6,897 nt of DNA from Treponema sp. (GTDB lineage Bacteria > Spirochaetota > Spirochaetia > Treponematales > Breznakiellaceae): contig JAIRSD010000192.1 in the NCBI GenBank assembly GCA_031255615.1, positions 1 to 6,897 of the forward strand, read 5' to 3'. Below the pieces are notes generated by a model, which worked only from the letters and a program-made list of their open reading frames with translations, had not been told where the DNA came from and did not search any database. A program made the position numbers and the translations under genes. Of this stretch, positions 159 through 4,133 are shown piece by piece (within the stretch, counting starts at the first letter, position 1; every line of letters begins with the position of its first letter).

Positions 159-358
159 CCTTGCTTCCCCTAAACCGCCGGATAAGCGAAAGAACAGGGA
201 ACAGGAAGATAAACCACGAAGGGGCACCAAGGAACACAAAGGAACACGAAGGAATGAAAAGGCGCCTCCAATCCCTGTCTTCGTGCGCCTTCTTCGCCTT
301 AGTGGTAAATTTCTTCCGTCCGCATATCTGATTTTTTAGGCTAAGCGGCCTGCGAATA
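159..358. repeat. Tandem unit 1, imperfect long hairpin with five decamers
   Basis: The left arm holds five consecutive 10-mers at 213-262: ACCACGAAGG, GGCACCAAGG, AACACAAAGG, AACACGAAGG and AATGAAAAGG. The right arm (about 279-306) has the same motif inverted, ending CCTTAGTGGT, the reverse of ACCACTAAGG. The unit can therefore fold on itself, with a loop around GCGCCTCCAATCCC. Similar ACCACGAAGG-type hairpins are, to my recollection, dispersed in many environmental bacterial genomes; I know of no established function. Confidence 0.88.
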
Positions 359-567
359 CCTTGCTTCCCCTAAACCGCCGGATAAGCGAAAGAACCGGGA
401 ACAGGAAGATAAACCACAAAGGGGCACCAAGGCGAACTACGGCTCGCCAGGAACACGAAGGAATGAAAAGGCGCCACCAGTTCCCGCTTTCGTGCGCCTT
501 CTTCGCCCTGGTGGTAAATTTCTTCCGTCCGTATATCCGATCTTTTAGGTTAAGCGGCCTGTGAATA
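359..567. repeat. Tandem unit 2, decamer replaced by a small palindrome
   Basis: This unit matches unit 1 except that the third decamer (AACACAAAGG) is replaced by a 19-nt block at 433-451. The block creates a small inverted repeat, GGCGA (431-435) with TCGCC (444-448). This one change explains the 9-bp longer period. Decamers at 413-422, 423-432, 452-461 and 462-471 are kept in register, and the inverted right arm is also kept (CCCTGGTGGT in place of CCTTAGTGGT). Confidence 0.88.
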
Positions 568-754
568 CCTTACTTCCCCTAAACCGCTGGATAAGCGAAA
601 GAACCGGGAGCAGGAAGATAAACCACGAAGGAACACAAAGGTACACGAAGGAATGAAAAGGCGCCTCCAATCCCTGTCTTCGTGCGCCTTCTTCGCCTTA
701 GTGGTAAATTTCTTCCGTCCATATATCCGAATTTTTAGGCCAGGCGGCCTGCGG
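568..754. repeat. Tandem unit 3, one decamer shorter
   Basis: The central tract has four decamers at 622-661 (ACCACGAAGG, AACACAAAGG, TACACGAAGG, AATGAAAAGG). It lacks the GGCACCAAGG step of units 1 and 2, an exact 10-bp loss. The unit end GCGGCCTGCG runs straight into the palindrome at 755, with no AATA spacer as seen after units 1 and 2. Confidence 0.88.
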
Positions 755-788
755 GAGTTGTTCAGAAACTGAAGTTTCAGAACAACTC
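755..788. repeat. 34-bp palindrome, GTTGTTC family copy A
   Basis: Left arm GAGTTGTTCAGAAACT and right arm AGTTTCAGAACAACTC are 16 bp each, with one mismatch and a 2-nt centre. A related palindrome occurs at 3927-3958, so this is a dispersed repeat. It starts 2 nt past the stop codon of the minus-strand giant gene. It could stop transcription or protect the mRNA 3' end, but no T tract follows on the minus strand, so it is not a classical intrinsic terminator. Confidence 0.9.
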
Positions 789-790
789 TA

Positions 791-3607
791 CTAAATAAGG
801 CGGTGTTTCCGGGCGGCCATGCTGAGGGCGCCGTTCCAGCGGGGCTGGGTAAGATAGGTCTGTCTGGCTTTGATATCGTTTATCCGGCTGGCCCTTCGCT
901 GGAGTTGTTTGAAGGCCATGCTGATGGCGGTATTCATATCGACCTGGGGGGCGCCGGATTCCTGGAGCACCTGGTACCAGGCGTAGTAGTAGAAGGAGTC
1001 CCAGGGGTCCGCGTCCGAGAGCCGCTCGTCCCGCAGGGCCCGCTGCATGATTCCGAGGGCCTCGGCCCTGCCCTTTGGGGAGCTCCGGCAGAGGGACAGG
1101 GCGTAGTAGACGGCGGCCATGCGGCCCCAGATTTCCCGCGGGGGGAGGAGGAGGAGTTCGCACTGGCTGAAGCCGCTGCGCCAGTCCGGCTGCTCGGTGT
1201 AGATGAAGAGTTCGTCGGGCAGGGTTTCGGAGAGGGCGGCGGCCAGATCCCCGGCCAGATCCGCGGCCAGGGAATAATCGCCCGCCAGGTAGGCGCCTTC
1301 GACTTTGAATAGTTCCGCGTCGATGTTTCCGCCGGGGCCGGGCAGGAAGGAGGTCTGGGAATATATCCGGGCCCGGTACGCCCAGGCTTCCAGGAGGGAC
1401 ATTTTTTCCGGCGAGGGATTCCCCGCGGGGCTGCCGGCGATGTCCTGGAAAAATTGCAGGGCGTCCTGGTAAAAGCCGAGATCGAAGGCGAGTTTGCCGC
1501 GGAAAAAACGGGCCCGATCCGCCCATTCCATCAGGCCGGCCTTTTTCGCCTGAATTTCCGCGGCCTCCGCGGACTGCTGGGCCTGGGAAATATTGCCGTG
1601 AAGGAACTGTACCGCCGCGTCGTAAAAAAGAGCCAGGGGCAGTTCTTCGTAATTGCCGAATTTCTCCGCGTTTTCCACGGCGAATCCGGCGTACTCCACG
1701 GTTTCCCCCATCCGCTGTTTGAAGATGTTTACCAGGGAAAGGAGGCGGTTCGACTGGGCAAGGCCGGACCAGGGGGCGTTCTGGCTGAGGAGGAAGGCTT
1801 CTCTAACGGCGTCTTGGGCGGAATCTGCGTCCCGGATTCCCAGGAAATAGGCCCCGATGTTGGCCAGGGTCTGGGCTTTGAAGGGAGGGTATATCCGGTC
1901 CTCCACCAGGCCGCAGCGGAAGGCTTCCTTGATGTCCTCTTTGTTTCCGGCCAGGAGGGCCCGAAAGCCGTGGATGAGGAATTCTACGGTCAGGGCCCGC
2001 TGGGGGCCCACGATGGATTCCAGCCTTCCCGTTTTGCGGGCCTCCTCAAAACCGGCGGGATAGCCCTTGGCCATATCCATGACGATGGATTTAAGGATCA
2101 GTTCATCCCCCCTCTTGATGGTTTCGAATACCGCCGCCCCCCCGTCCAGGGCCGCCAGAGCGTCCAGTAGGGGGAAGCAGGGATGGATGAGCCGGGCGAA
2201 AACCCAGTCCAGGAGCCGGTTCCGCACCATCCGCCGGACGAGGGCCTTCCGCTCGCCCAAGATGGACTCGGCCTGGGGGAGGAAATCTTTGATCCGGGGC
2301 CGGGGATCCTGGGGGTTGTCCACCAGACCGGCATTGATAAGCATATCCAGGGCCCGGATGATAGTCCTGGAGGATTTACCCCCTTCGGCCAGGAGCTGGG
2401 GGAACATATAGCCGGGAAAATAGCGGCCCAGCAGGGTAAAGGCGTAACAGATCTCCCAAAGATCCCGGGACATGTCCGGGCTGAAGCCGCCCCCTGCCCC
2501 TTCCCGCCGGATGATCCGGTGGAAAATCTGGTCCCAGGACGGATCTACCGGCGCCCCGCCGGGGGAGGCGGTGCCGTAAATTTCCAGGGGGGGCCGGGAG
2601 GAATCGGCGGCGTGCCGGGATGCGTAGGGGGCCAGGACCTCTTGCACAATCCGGGCGGTCCCTTCCGCAGCCTTGTCGATGTTTTCCAGGATAAGGACGG
2701 CCCGGAGCTTTTGGCCCCCGGCGGCCCTGGTGTAGGCCGCCAGGAGCAGACTGAAAAAACGCCGCGCCATGTTGAACCGGAGGGGAGGGAATTCCCCCTG
2801 GAGCCGGTCCTGGAAAAGGGTCTCCCGCAGAAACTCCAGTTCTTCCCCGGCATCCTCCGCCTGATCCCCCGCCATTGAACCGGCGGCATCCGCGAGGAAG
2901 CGGTGGATCTCCGGACTGTATGCGTCGAGAAGGGCGGCCGGCCCCCGGCCGGCAGCGGCGGCGATCCCCGAACCGAAGTGGACCGCCAGGGGAGGGGCGC
3001 CGCCGCCGGCGAATTCGTAAAGCCCCGCCCGTTTCCCGAAAAATTCCGGCCCGGTAACCAGGGTGTTCCCCCCCCTTCCCTGTTTTAAACTCCTGACGAT
3101 GTCGGATCGCCGGGACTGTTCCGCCTCGACGGAAAGGGGGGCCCGCAGACCCTCCAGGGGCTTGCGGACGCTGATACGGGAAAAGGCCCCGGCCCCGTCC
3201 GGCAGGGAGGACGAATCGACGGGGGCTTCAAAAAGGAGGTAATAGGACAGGAGCTCCCTGCTTTTCTCATCGCAGTAGATCCCGGCCCGCCCGGGGGAAG
3301 ACAGGCAGCGGCAGATCCGTTCCCCGTCTTCGGGTATGTCCCTGCCGATCAGCAGGGCGTAGCCGAACAACTCATCGGCCCGGGATTCCACATAATCCAT
3401 GACGGCGTCTATACAATCGAGCATGTCCAGGCCAAGCCCTATGGCGGCCTCATTAAAAACGGCCCCCACCATGCGGTGTTCAGGTTTTTCTACGCCGCCG
3501 GCCTCCCGTATGAGCGCCAATACCCGGTCTTCCAGGGCCTCCACCACCCGGGGATTGGTACGGCGAAGCTGGGATCTAAAGCGTAGAAAAAACAAAAACC
3601 GAATCAT
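791..3607 (-). CDS. 938-residue STAND-like protein with degenerate P-loop and helical C-terminal repeats
   Basis: I do not recognise a named family. Residues 1-130 are a compact region whose end (GIYCDEKSRELL at 109-120, then YYLLFEAP) resembles the tail of class III nucleotidyl cyclase domains; catalytic aspartates are not evident, so any cyclase origin is speculative. Residues 182-196 (TLVTGPEFFGKRAGL) look like a Walker A loop with Arg in place of the usual Ser/Thr. Residues 303-313 (AVLILENIDKA) look like Walker B with an altered acidic end. From about 540 to 900 the protein is helix-rich with TPR-like pairs (for example 655-725). There is no signal peptide or convincing membrane segment, so it is probably cytoplasmic. 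The layout suggests a signalling or scaffold STAND-type protein, perhaps unable to hydrolyse NTP. The ATG at 3607 has no Shine-Dalgarno; Met46 or Met62 are alternative starts. Repeat arrays flank it on both sides. Confidence 0.85.
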   Translation of the reverse strand: MIRFLFFLRFRSQLRRTNPRVVEALEDRVLALIREAGGVEKPEHRMVGAVFNEAAIGLGLDMLDCIDAVMDYVESRADELFGYALLIGRDIPEDGERICRCLSSPGRAGIYCDEKSRELLSYYLLFEAPVDSSSLPDGAGAFSRISVRKPLEGLRAPLSVEAEQSRRSDIVRSLKQGRGGNTLVTGPEFFGKRAGLYEFAGGGAPPLAVHFGSGIAAAAGRGPAALLDAYSPEIHRFLADAAGSMAGDQAEDAGEELEFLRETLFQDRLQGEFPPLRFNMARRFFSLLLAAYTRAAGGQKLRAVLILENIDKAAEGTARIVQEVLAPYASRHAADSSRPPLEIYGTASPGGAPVDPSWDQIFHRIIRREGAGGGFSPDMSRDLWEICYAFTLLGRYFPGYMFPQLLAEGGKSSRTIIRALDMLINAGLVDNPQDPRPRIKDFLPQAESILGERKALVRRMVRNRLLDWVFARLIHPCFPLLDALAALDGGAAVFETIKRGDELILKSIVMDMAKGYPAGFEEARKTGRLESIVGPQRALTVEFLIHGFRALLAGNKEDIKEAFRCGLVEDRIYPPFKAQTLANIGAYFLGIRDADSAQDAVREAFLLSQNAPWSGLAQSNRLLSLVNIFKQRMGETVEYAGFAVENAEKFGNYEELPLALFYDAAVQFLHGNISQAQQSAEAAEIQAKKAGLMEWADRARFFRGKLAFDLGFYQDALQFFQDIAGSPAGNPSPEKMSLLEAWAYRARIYSQTSFLPGPGGNIDAELFKVEGAYLAGDYSLAADLAGDLAAALSETLPDELFIYTEQPDWRSGFSQCELLLLPPREIWGRMAAVYYALSLCRSSPKGRAEALGIMQRALRDERLSDADPWDSFYYYAWYQVLQESGAPQVDMNTAISMAFKQLQRRASRINDIKARQTYLTQPRWNGALSMAARKHRLI

Positions 3608-3700: not shown

Positions 3701-3866
3701 GGGCGCATCCCCGCCTGCGGCGGGGACCGGGCTATCCGCTTAAATCTTTTGCCTGGCCCCGCCAGGCAAAAGATACCGCTTCTATCCCTTGCGCGGGCGC
3801 AAGCCGGCCGGCTTGCGCCTTTCGCTGTGCCCCGCCCTTCCCGGCCTGGCTCAGGGGCGGCGGGGG
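3701..3866 (+). repeat. Modular four-hairpin element, copy L
   Basis: The order is: linker GGGCGCA, hairpin H1 (3708-3726, 8-bp stem), linker CCGGGCTATCCGCT, hairpin H2 (3744-3774, perfect 14-bp stem, loop CCC), linker CCGCTTCTATCCCTTGCGCG, hairpin H3 (3796-3819, perfect 24-bp palindrome GGCGCAAGCCGG/CCGGCTTGCGCC), a short CTTT-rich linker, and a weaker H4 (CCCCGCC at 3830 with GGCGGGG at 3859). The linkers match copy R at 3980-4133 read on the other strand, while the stems differ. Open frames through this block are by-products of its composition: the same peptide, ARARDRSGI, appears from both copies on opposite strands. I cannot name a family. Confidence 0.88.
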
Positions 3867-3926
3867 GTATCCTTAAAGCCGGTGCGCGGAACGCCGACAT
3901 TGGACTTGTTCAATACCCCGGTTGGC

Positions 3927-3958
3927 TGTTGTTCGGAAACCGAGCTTTCCGAACAACA
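3927..3958. repeat. 32-bp palindrome, GTTGTTC family copy B
   Basis: GTTGTTCGGAAA pairs with TTTCCGAACAAC around a short centre (CCGAGC). Compared with 755-788 the shared pattern is GTTGTTC-R-GAAAC-Y-GA, then TTTC-M-GAACAAC, and both copies continue with CTA plus T at the right edge (CTACT and CTATT). It lies in the spacer between the two modular elements. It is not attached to a coding end here, which argues against a purely terminator role. Confidence 0.88.
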
Positions 3959-3979
3959 CTATTGCGGATAAATTCCTCA

Positions 3980-4133
3980 CGTTGCCGCGCCGCGGGCGCG
4001 GCAACGCAAAAGGCGAAAGCCGCGCCCGGCGCGGCTTTCGCCCGCGCAAGGGATAGAAGCGGAATAAAAACCCGCGGGGTTTTTATTAGAGCGGATAGCC
4101 CGGTCCCCGGCGCGGAGCGCCGGGGATGCGCCC
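3980..4133 (-). repeat. Modular four-hairpin element, copy R (inverted)
   Basis: Read on the minus strand it has the same linkers as copy L, in the same order. H1 is 4104-4126 (CCCCGGCGC/GCGCCGGGG core, loop GGA). Next comes CCGGGCTATCCGCT, then H2 at 4063-4087 (AATAAAAACCC paired with GGGTTTTTATT), then the identical 20-nt linker CCGCTTCTATCCCTTGCGCG. H3 is 4012-4042 (15-bp perfect arms GGCGAAAGCCGCGCC) and H4 is 3980-4006 (12-bp perfect arms CGTTGCCGCGCC, loop GCG). H2 and H4 share essentially no stem sequence with copy L, yet both fold. It ends about 120 bp before the OTC start codon. Confidence 0.88.
4063..4087. terminator. Bidirectional terminator-like hairpin (H2 of copy R)
   Basis: An 11-bp perfect stem (AATAAAAACCC/GGGTTTTTATT) with a 3-nt loop ends in T5 on the plus strand and, on the minus strand, likewise in T5. 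The GC part is only 3 bp, so termination may be weak. The corresponding hairpin of copy L has a GC-rich core and shorter T tract, so termination is not a conserved property of the element. Confidence 0.4.

What the first reader, a model, noticed from the sequence alone, without database searches (positions are those of the whole stretch)
3701..4133. Pair of modular elements: constant linkers, variable but paired hairpins
Two ~155-165 bp elements in inverted orientation share a linker of 14 nt (CCGGGCTATCCGCT) and one of 20 nt (CCGCTTCTATCCCTTGCGCG) without a mismatch, plus a GGGCGCA start and a TTT-containing linker. Between the linkers are hairpins H1-H4 in the same order, but with changed stem sequences. 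This is the reverse of ordinary decay, where stems and linkers drift alike. It implies either selection for structure or a mechanism that swaps or rewrites palindromes. I have a vague memory of similar GGATAGAAGCGG/AGCGGATAGCCCGG modules in other bacteria, but I cannot name a described family.
Basis: seen in the sequence. Interest (0 to 1): 0.85.

Follow-up and report, generated by a model that had tools for sequence, protein, structure and literature searches.

The report
Mosaic folding repeats with exchangeable hairpins
Two copies of a scattered bacterial repeat keep the same short linkers while their hairpins differ; it is an enlarged relative of a catalogued "RNA" called Flavo-1, and some of its hairpin loops hint that the working form may be a folded single strand of DNA rather than RNA.

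Summary
Both elements carry the core of Rfam Flavo-1 (RF01705): element A (minus strand) scores 42.0 bits, at the cut-off; element B (plus strand) 31.4. Outside the Rfam model lie a closing stem P1 and a hairpin H1, giving a three-way junction. The ~95-nt unit recurs in Bacteroidota and termite-gut spirochaetes, up to 78 exact copies in a 1.7-Mb draft genome. Stems covary: 7-bp perfect stems in 159 of 208 distinct H2 and 126 of 162 distinct H1, against 4% and 3% with swapped halves. Copies within a genome carry different combinations of hairpins. The 433-bp pair lies in a gap that holds no element in 13 relatives. Orientation to genes is unbiased. GNA is the commonest H1 loop class, 58 of 181 distinct H1 against 6 of its complement. 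DNA energies favour this strand of H1; RNA energies do not in spirochaetes. H2 shows no DNA bias. Best reading: a mosaic, structure-recognised mobile repeat, possibly acting as folded single-stranded DNA; no mobilising enzyme was found.

The parts
3701..3794 (-). Element A, complete three-way-junction unit (3' tail CC 3701-3702, P1' to P1)
   Evidence: (Flavo-1 42.0 bits at 3803-3721 minus)
3703..3707 (-). Element A P1' (TGCGC), pairs with P1 at 3790-3794
3708..3727 (-). Element A hairpin H1, loop C(GCA)G
3728..3740 (-). Element A linker L2 (AGCGGATAGCCCG)
3741..3775 (-). Element A hairpin H2
3776..3789 (-). Element A linker L1 (AGGGATAGAAGCGG)
3790..3794 (-). Element A P1 (GCGCA)
3796..3819 (-). 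Upstream hairpin H3 of element A, likely an exchangeable module
3830..3865 (.). Imperfect hairpin H4 beside element A; membership unproven
   Evidence: sequence only
3866..3979 (.). Middle of the insertion, not shared by the two elements, holding a GTTGTTCGGAAA hairpin at 3927-3958
3980..4006 (+). Hairpin H4 beside element B; membership unproven
4012..4042 (+). Upstream hairpin H3 of element B
4044..4133 (+). Element B, complete three-way-junction unit
   Evidence: (Flavo-1 31.4 bits at 4035-4109 plus)
4044..4048 (+). Element B P1 (GCGCA), pairs with P1' at 4127-4131
4049..4062 (+). Element B linker L1
4063..4089 (+). Element B hairpin H2
4090..4102 (+). Element B linker L2
4103..4126 (+). Element B hairpin H1, loop C(GGA)G
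4127..4133 (+). Element B P1' and CC tail

Best explanation
Each element is a copy of a ~95-nt dispersed repeat built on the Flavo-1 core. SHOWN (by sequence and computed folds): one strand can fold into a three-way junction. Stem P1 closes it; one arm holds the two near-constant linkers paired through G.A-rich internal loops and topped by variable hairpin H2; the other arm is variable hairpin H1. The stems covary, copies in one genome carry different combinations of hairpins, and sites with and without the element exist between species. INFERRED: the repeat is mobile, modules are exchanged by recombination, and a trans-acting protein recognises the constant core and the shape, so hairpin sequence is free to change as long as it pairs. 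POSSIBLE, NOT PROVED: the recognised form is single-stranded DNA of the Flavo-1 strand, as is known or recalled for REP elements, IS200/IS605 ends and integron attC sites. The window holds two such copies, head to head, between the argF gene and the 938-aa gene.
For: Flavo-1 match. P1 partner followed by C in 125 of 147 elements, 23% with swapped P1. H2 and H1 covariation; core pair N7-T7' is A-T 208, T-A 24, G-C 1, with no mispair in 233. Copies per genome 66, 78, 46, 30 in four drafts, reversed-pattern control 0. Patchy presence, exact pattern in 49 of 195 genomes of one family. No orientation bias to genes among 85 placed elements, ++31 --24 +-16 -+14. Element-free argF gap in 13 relatives. 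One Flavobacterium locus: 9 of 30 filled by pattern, 11 of 30 with a 112-124 nt gap and no element. Sharp ends in two phyla. Hairpin combinations in G001 (41, by eye). Similar ~190-bp copies in G012, six at 87-95% identity. Loops over H1, H2, H3: GNA 85, TNC 14 of 363; terminator-like hairpins in the same loci: GNA 1, TNC 5 of 159. H1 as DNA: the Flavo-1 strand is more stable in 165 of 179; as RNA, in 69 of 183. Short Bacteroidota H1 (up to 16 nt): 15 of 19 have a GNA loop. GNA-loop DNA mini-hairpins are reported as extraordinarily stable (PMC4686876, passages seen).
Against: No mobilising enzyme found: Y1_Tnp in 6 of 10 copy-rich and 8 of 14 copy-free genomes; reverse transcriptase in 2 of 10 and 5 of 14. 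No target duplication or exact empty site resolved. Two thirds of H1 loops are not GNA (123 of 181). H2 does not favour DNA (83 of 178) and slightly favours RNA (116 of 184). In Bacteroidota the RNA energies of H1 also favour the same strand, 34 of 43. GNRA and TNCG loops are as rare in the terminator-like control (3 and 2 of 159) as in the elements (10 and 1 of 363), so their rarity does not argue against RNA. G.T exceeds A.C on that strand (cells: H1 19:4; simple H2 8:3), which fits RNA as well as DNA; the first count, with conserved C.A mispairs of H2 kept in, gave A.C 60 against G.T 14 for H2. Among the orthologous copies L199 has a C.A mispair and L198 a T.G pair in the core (61, by eye), so not every change is compensated. 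Orthologous copies kept better than their flanks suggest a host function or gene conversion rather than plain selfish DNA.
Confidence: 0.48

Rival explanations
1. It is a family of small RNA genes or RNA regulatory elements, as Rfam files Flavo-1, with stems drifting under selection for RNA structure.
For: Rfam type 'Gene; sRNA'. Weinberg 2010 table: probably RNA, probably not cis-regulatory. G.T exceeds A.C. Full RNA fold favours the Flavo-1 strand in 199 of 216 (the DNA fold in 212 of 215). H2 favours RNA slightly. In F. psychrophilum several 5' transcribed regions coincide with Flavo-1 hits.
Against: H1 loops and, in spirochaetes, H1 energies point to DNA. Orientation is random to genes. 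The same F. psychrophilum paper reports hits indistinctly sense or antisense and many outside transcribed regions (PMC9723704, passage). Dozens of copies with varied hairpin combinations are unusual for an sRNA.
Confidence: 0.27
2. A host-maintained chromosomal site (protein-binding or topology site, BIME-like), dispersed long ago and kept by selection or gene conversion, with little present mobility.
For: Seven orthologous copies 86% identical on average against 56% and 50% in the flanks and 80% in the coding tail. Paired changes at orthologous copies L189 and L191 (35, by eye).
Against: Patchy distribution, similar copies at several sites of G012, element pair absent at this locus in 13 relatives.
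Confidence: 0.18
3. Hairpins are rewritten by replication template switching (quasi-palindrome correction), so perfect stems need no selection.
For: Many stems are near-perfect palindromes.
Against: I would expect this process to treat both strands alike, yet G.T against A.C and GNA against TNC are strand-biased. It does not explain paired changes within the linker core.
Confidence: 0.05

Closest known systems
Flavo-1 RNA, Rfam RF01705 (Weinberg et al. 2010)
   Same: Core GAUNGAAGCGG - hairpin - AGCGGANAGC with the same internal loops; 42.0 and 31.4 bits; Flavobacterium genome G007 carries both types.
   Different: Canonical Flavobacterium copies have the outer pairs reversed (CCCCGAU / AGCGGG against AGGGAU / AGCCCG), and in the 30 shown I saw no H1 hairpin (by eye). 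The Rfam model lacks P1 and H1. The taxon listed in the paper is Bacteroidetes.
REP / BIME / REPIN elements with TnpA-REP (RAYT)
   Same: High copy number, intergenic, palindromic, mosaic, folded single-strand form recognised (PMC8266576, passages), opposite-orientation pairs (PMC2817692, listing).
   Different: No GTAG in the constant parts, the unit is a three-way junction, and Y1_Tnp does not track copy number.
Integron attC sites
   Same: Recognition by folded shape with variable stems (recalled, no call).
   Different: No integrase link sought; scattered intergenic sites rather than cassette arrays.
STAXI motif (Weinberg 2010)
   Same: A catalogued motif for which folded single-stranded DNA was considered (passage).
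   Different: UUCG loops argued for RNA there; here GNA loops argue for DNA.

Membership tests
Flavo-1 (RF01705) | Covariance-model score at or above the gathering score of 42 | tested here: inconclusive
   A is printed as 42.0 bits and B as 31.4 bits with E 1.1e-4 in the E-value scan; the gathering scan of the whole window listed neither
Flavo-1 (RF01705) | Core linkers pairing through conserved internal loops | tested here: met
   alignments; core pairs
Flavo-1 (RF01705) | Found in Bacteroidetes | tested here: met
   RF01705 in 57 of 395 Bacteroidota genomes at E<=0.001 (46 over the cut-off), 0 of 14 controls; this variant in both Bacteroidota and spirochaetes
Flavo-1 (RF01705) | Functions as an RNA | not testable with these tools
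   no transcript data here; H1 loops point away from RNA, H2 does not
REP/BIME | GTAG tetranucleotide at the hairpin foot | tested here: not met
   absent from P1, L1 and L2 on either strand, by reading the constant positions
REP/BIME | Associated HuH Y1 transposase (RAYT) | tested here: not met
   Y1_Tnp in 6 of 10 copy-rich and 8 of 14 copy-free genomes; draft genomes, so absence is soft
REP/BIME | High-copy intergenic mosaic repeats | tested here: met
Integron attC | Cassette array with IntI integrase | not tested
   no search made

The most novel reading that the evidence does not exclude
The three-way-junction Flavo-1 elements, filed as small RNA, are mobile elements that work as folded single-stranded DNA. 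They are spread by an undescribed recombinase or transposase that reads a constant G.A-rich core and accepts any hairpins, so that copies become mosaics of interchangeable hairpin modules.
Probability: 0.33. Interest if true: 0.8.

Novelty: new variant of a known kind. Interest (0 to 1): 0.57.

Why it matters
A 2010 'RNA' family with no known function would gain a full architecture (closing stem, extra hairpin, sharp ends), a second phylum and a testable mechanism. If it is folded single-stranded DNA, it is a new kind of structure-read repeat not tied to the known REP transposase, and a warning that covariation alone does not prove RNA. Hairpin exchange around constant linkers is also a clean system for asking how palindromes change inside genomes.

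Tried and rejected
Cis-regulatory leader of argF: judged unlikely for this locus, because a promoter-like stretch shared with several relatives (CTTGTTATT...ATGGTAAATT, by eye) lies downstream of element B, and orientation is random across loci. Linked mobility gene beside the element: no recurrent neighbour among 849 ORFs; the largest cluster (13 ORFs, 12 loci) looks like ABC-transporter ATPases by eye. RAYT/Y1 and reverse transcriptase as universal mobilisers: no association. Y2_Tnp: 0 of 24, but all controls were silent, so nothing is learned. Plasmid and phage similarity: 40 plasmid and 4 phage records with short matches, best E 2e-4; several lie at the ends of Rhodococcus plasmids and cover only about window 4089-4132 (L2 and H1); judged chance between palindromes, not followed. 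Skipping-rope RNA, recalled as a lead: not among the Rfam matches, nothing useful in papers. Replication-strand bias: the pattern gave 2, 3 and 2 copies in three genomes, too few; the strands in the capped list were looked at by eye without a clear result. Class of the Clostridiales draft: 1 of 391 genomes, the seed itself, a termite-gut draft, possibly mis-binned or a transfer. Searches for linker letters in print, for RF01705 (54), Flavo-1 (16) and by topic found no functional account; the library is open-access only.

P1 statistics were not selected for P1 but allow G.T pairs, as does their control; four of 151 elements lacked flank and were left out. The 216 and 233 complete elements were selected for a perfect P1, and one search counts only hairpins of 16 nt or more. 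Copies within a genome are not independent. DNA energy tables reward GNA loops, so searches are not independent evidence. The loop controls use other stem limits than the elements. In one search, of 30 loci (L188 being the query genome) 9 are filled and 11 empty; L192, L193 and L195 hold interrupted elements and L215 a remnant (by eye); L194, L197, L200, L202, L216 and L217 hold other sequence. One search used seven of the nine filled loci.

Full report
OBSERVATION. The two-linker pattern occurs twice in the window and in none of 200 shuffles. Read on the strand used by Rfam, each element is 5'-P1(GCGCA)-L1(AGGGATAGAAGCGG)-H2-L2(AGCGGATAGCCCG)-H1-P1'(TGCGC)-CC. Element A is on the minus strand (3701-3794), element B on the plus strand (4044-4133). 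Both fold into a three-way junction with DNA and with RNA parameters, z from -4.2 to -6.3 on the Flavo-1 strand; the opposite strand folds less well but also strongly, z from -3.5 to -5.6.

NAME. A scan of Rfam at its own cut-offs found nothing. With an E-value limit, both elements match Flavo-1, RF01705: 42.0 bits (cut-off 42) and 31.4 bits. Five of the six viral contigs that carry the same linkers also match below the cut-off, with E from 0.0004 to 0.37. The Rfam model covers the linkers and H2; P1 and H1 lie outside it. Canonical copies in Flavobacterium are numerous, 129, 68, 122 and 65 matches among 150 candidates scored in each of four genomes. They have the outer pairs reversed, and in the 30 shown I saw no H1 hairpin (by eye).

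SPREAD. Of 12 genomes searched whole, 11 had exact matches: 66, 78, 46 and 30 in four spirochaete drafts and 1 to 3 in the other seven; the reversed pattern gave 0. In one spirochaete family 49 of 195 genomes have 1 to 66 exact copies. RF01705 is found in 57 of 395 Bacteroidota genomes, 46 over the cut-off, and 0 of 14 control genomes. In the class of the Clostridiales draft only that genome itself, 1 of 391, matched. Six stretches among the viral contigs matched.

STRUCTURE AND COVARIATION. In 147 elements not selected for it, the five bases before L1 find a partner (G.T allowed) followed by C in 125; after dealing P1 to other elements the figure is 23%. Eighteen distinct fully Watson-Crick P1 pairs occur. 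Among 233 complete elements (selected for a perfect P1), 159 of 208 distinct H2 and 126 of 162 distinct H1 of 16 nt or more have a perfect stem of 7 bp or more, against 4.2% and 3.3% when halves are swapped. The core pair at position 7 is A-T in 208, T-A in 24 and G-C in 1; the other core pairs hardly vary, with one to two unpaired or wobble exceptions at three of them. A relaxed scan shows further paired linker changes, such as GAAGCGG/AGCG to GGAGGGG/CCCG (by eye).

MODULES. In genome G001 the same H2 types occur with several H1 types and several upstream hairpins (by eye). In G012 a unit of up to ~190 bp, the element plus an upstream module, recurs at six other places at 87-95% identity and at a seventh, with an insertion, at 75%. 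Ends are sharp in both phyla: conservation starts at the first base of P1 and fades after GCGCCC-AAA; in G001 weaker conservation runs further on both sides.

SITES. The 938-aa gene has a match in 174 of 195 genomes of the family. In 14 of the 30 fetched loci argF is also found beside it. In the 13 of these that I cut out, the distance between fixed points is 121-363 nt; no element was found in any of the 30 loci; in the window the distance is 694 nt. A promoter-like stretch before argF, shared with several relatives by eye, lies downstream of element B. At one Flavobacterium locus, 9 of 30 loci carry the element by pattern and 11 of 30 have a gap of 112-124 nt without it. In seven filled orthologues the element is 86% identical on average, its flanks 56% and 50%, and the end of the upstream gene 80%. 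Two of these show paired core changes (L189, L191), but L198 has a T.G and L199 a C.A combination. So presence varies between species, but once present the element is kept better than its surroundings. Orientation relative to mechanical ORFs is unbiased among 85 placed elements; 38 lay inside mechanical ORFs and 28 near contig ends and were left out. Of seven pairs closer than 600 bp, six are divergent like the window's and one is tandem; of three at 600-1500 bp, one is divergent and two convergent. The numbers are small.

DNA OR RNA. Terminal loops on the Flavo-1 strand are GNA in 85 and TNC, its complement, in 14 of 363 over H1, H2 and H3; GNRA 10 and TNCG 1. Unoriented hairpins elsewhere in the same loci show GNA 15 and TNC 14 of 348. 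Oriented terminator-like hairpins show GNA 1, TNC 5, GNRA 3 and TNCG 2 of 159. So GNA is enriched and strand-biased, while GNRA and TNCG are rare in both and say nothing. Both phyla show the H1 bias, 17:2 and 41:4; GNA makes up 58 of 181 distinct H1, and 15 of 19 short Bacteroidota H1. As DNA, H1 is more stable on this strand in 165 of 179; as RNA only in 69 of 183. By distinct H1, spirochaetes give 105 of 115 as DNA and 40 of 116 as RNA; Bacteroidota give 38 of 42 and 34 of 43. GNA or GNNA loops with at least two G-C pairs are reported to make extraordinarily stable DNA mini-hairpins (PMC4686876, passages). Weinberg et al. used the mirror argument, UUCG loops, to prefer RNA for another motif (PMC2864571, passage). 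Against this, H2 shows no DNA bias and a slight RNA bias. G.T over A.C (cells 19:4 in H1; 8:3 in simple H2) shows a single-strand preference but not which nucleic acid. H2 types with a conserved C.A mispair were left out of that count; with them in, the first count was A.C 60 to G.T 14.

KNOWN WORK. Weinberg 2010 lists Flavo-1 as probably RNA, probably not cis-regulatory, in Bacteroidetes (passages only, supplements not available). A Flavobacterium psychrophilum transcriptome paper found several hits in 5' transcribed regions, but sense and antisense alike, many outside transcribed regions, with no real clue to function (passage). A review lists it among abundant sRNA families without a function (PMC9029176, passages). 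I found no report of the three-way junction, the spirochaete copies or a DNA role in searches of an open-access library.

CONCLUSION. The finding is real. It is an enlarged variant of a known, unexplained motif, dispersed as a mosaic repeat. The step from there to folded single-stranded DNA moved by an unknown enzyme is inference: about one chance in two for the mobile-repeat reading and one in three for its boldest form.

Noticed in passing
window 159-753: Three direct copies of a ~190-209 bp unit (CCTTGCTTCCCCTAAACCGCC ... CACGAAGG); over a 130-nt part two copies are 82% and 94% identical to the first.
   Followed up: partly
window 755-788 and 3927-3958: Two hairpins with constant GTTGTTC...GAACAAC ends and changed inner stems, the same constant/variable pattern on a small scale; the half-site GTTGTTCNGAAAC is in 9 of 394 loci.
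   Followed up: partly
L255, L044, L375-L382 (G002, G012): A second linker-and-hairpin module upstream of the element, roughly CTGGTCGCAAT-hairpin-ATTGCTGCTCGCCC, also with changed hairpins (by eye).
   Followed up: partly
H2 of many elements (for example AAATCCCGCAG...GAGGAATT): A recurrent C.A mispair near the base of H2 in several hairpin types, absent in others.
   Followed up: partly
L192, L193, L195: Flavobacterium copies in which an extra hairpin sequence sits inside linker 1, between AGGGAT and AAGYGG (by eye).
   Followed up: no
genome G017: 46 Y1_Tnp matches in one 2.5-Mb spirochaete genome that has no exact copy of this element.
   Followed up: no
close element pairs: L019, L035, L087, L095, L236, window: Six of seven pairs under 600 bp are head to head.
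   Followed up: partly
window 791-3607 (minus): 938-aa protein with no Pfam match, matched in 174 of 195 genomes of the family, with argF beside it in 14 of 30 fetched loci.
   Followed up: partly
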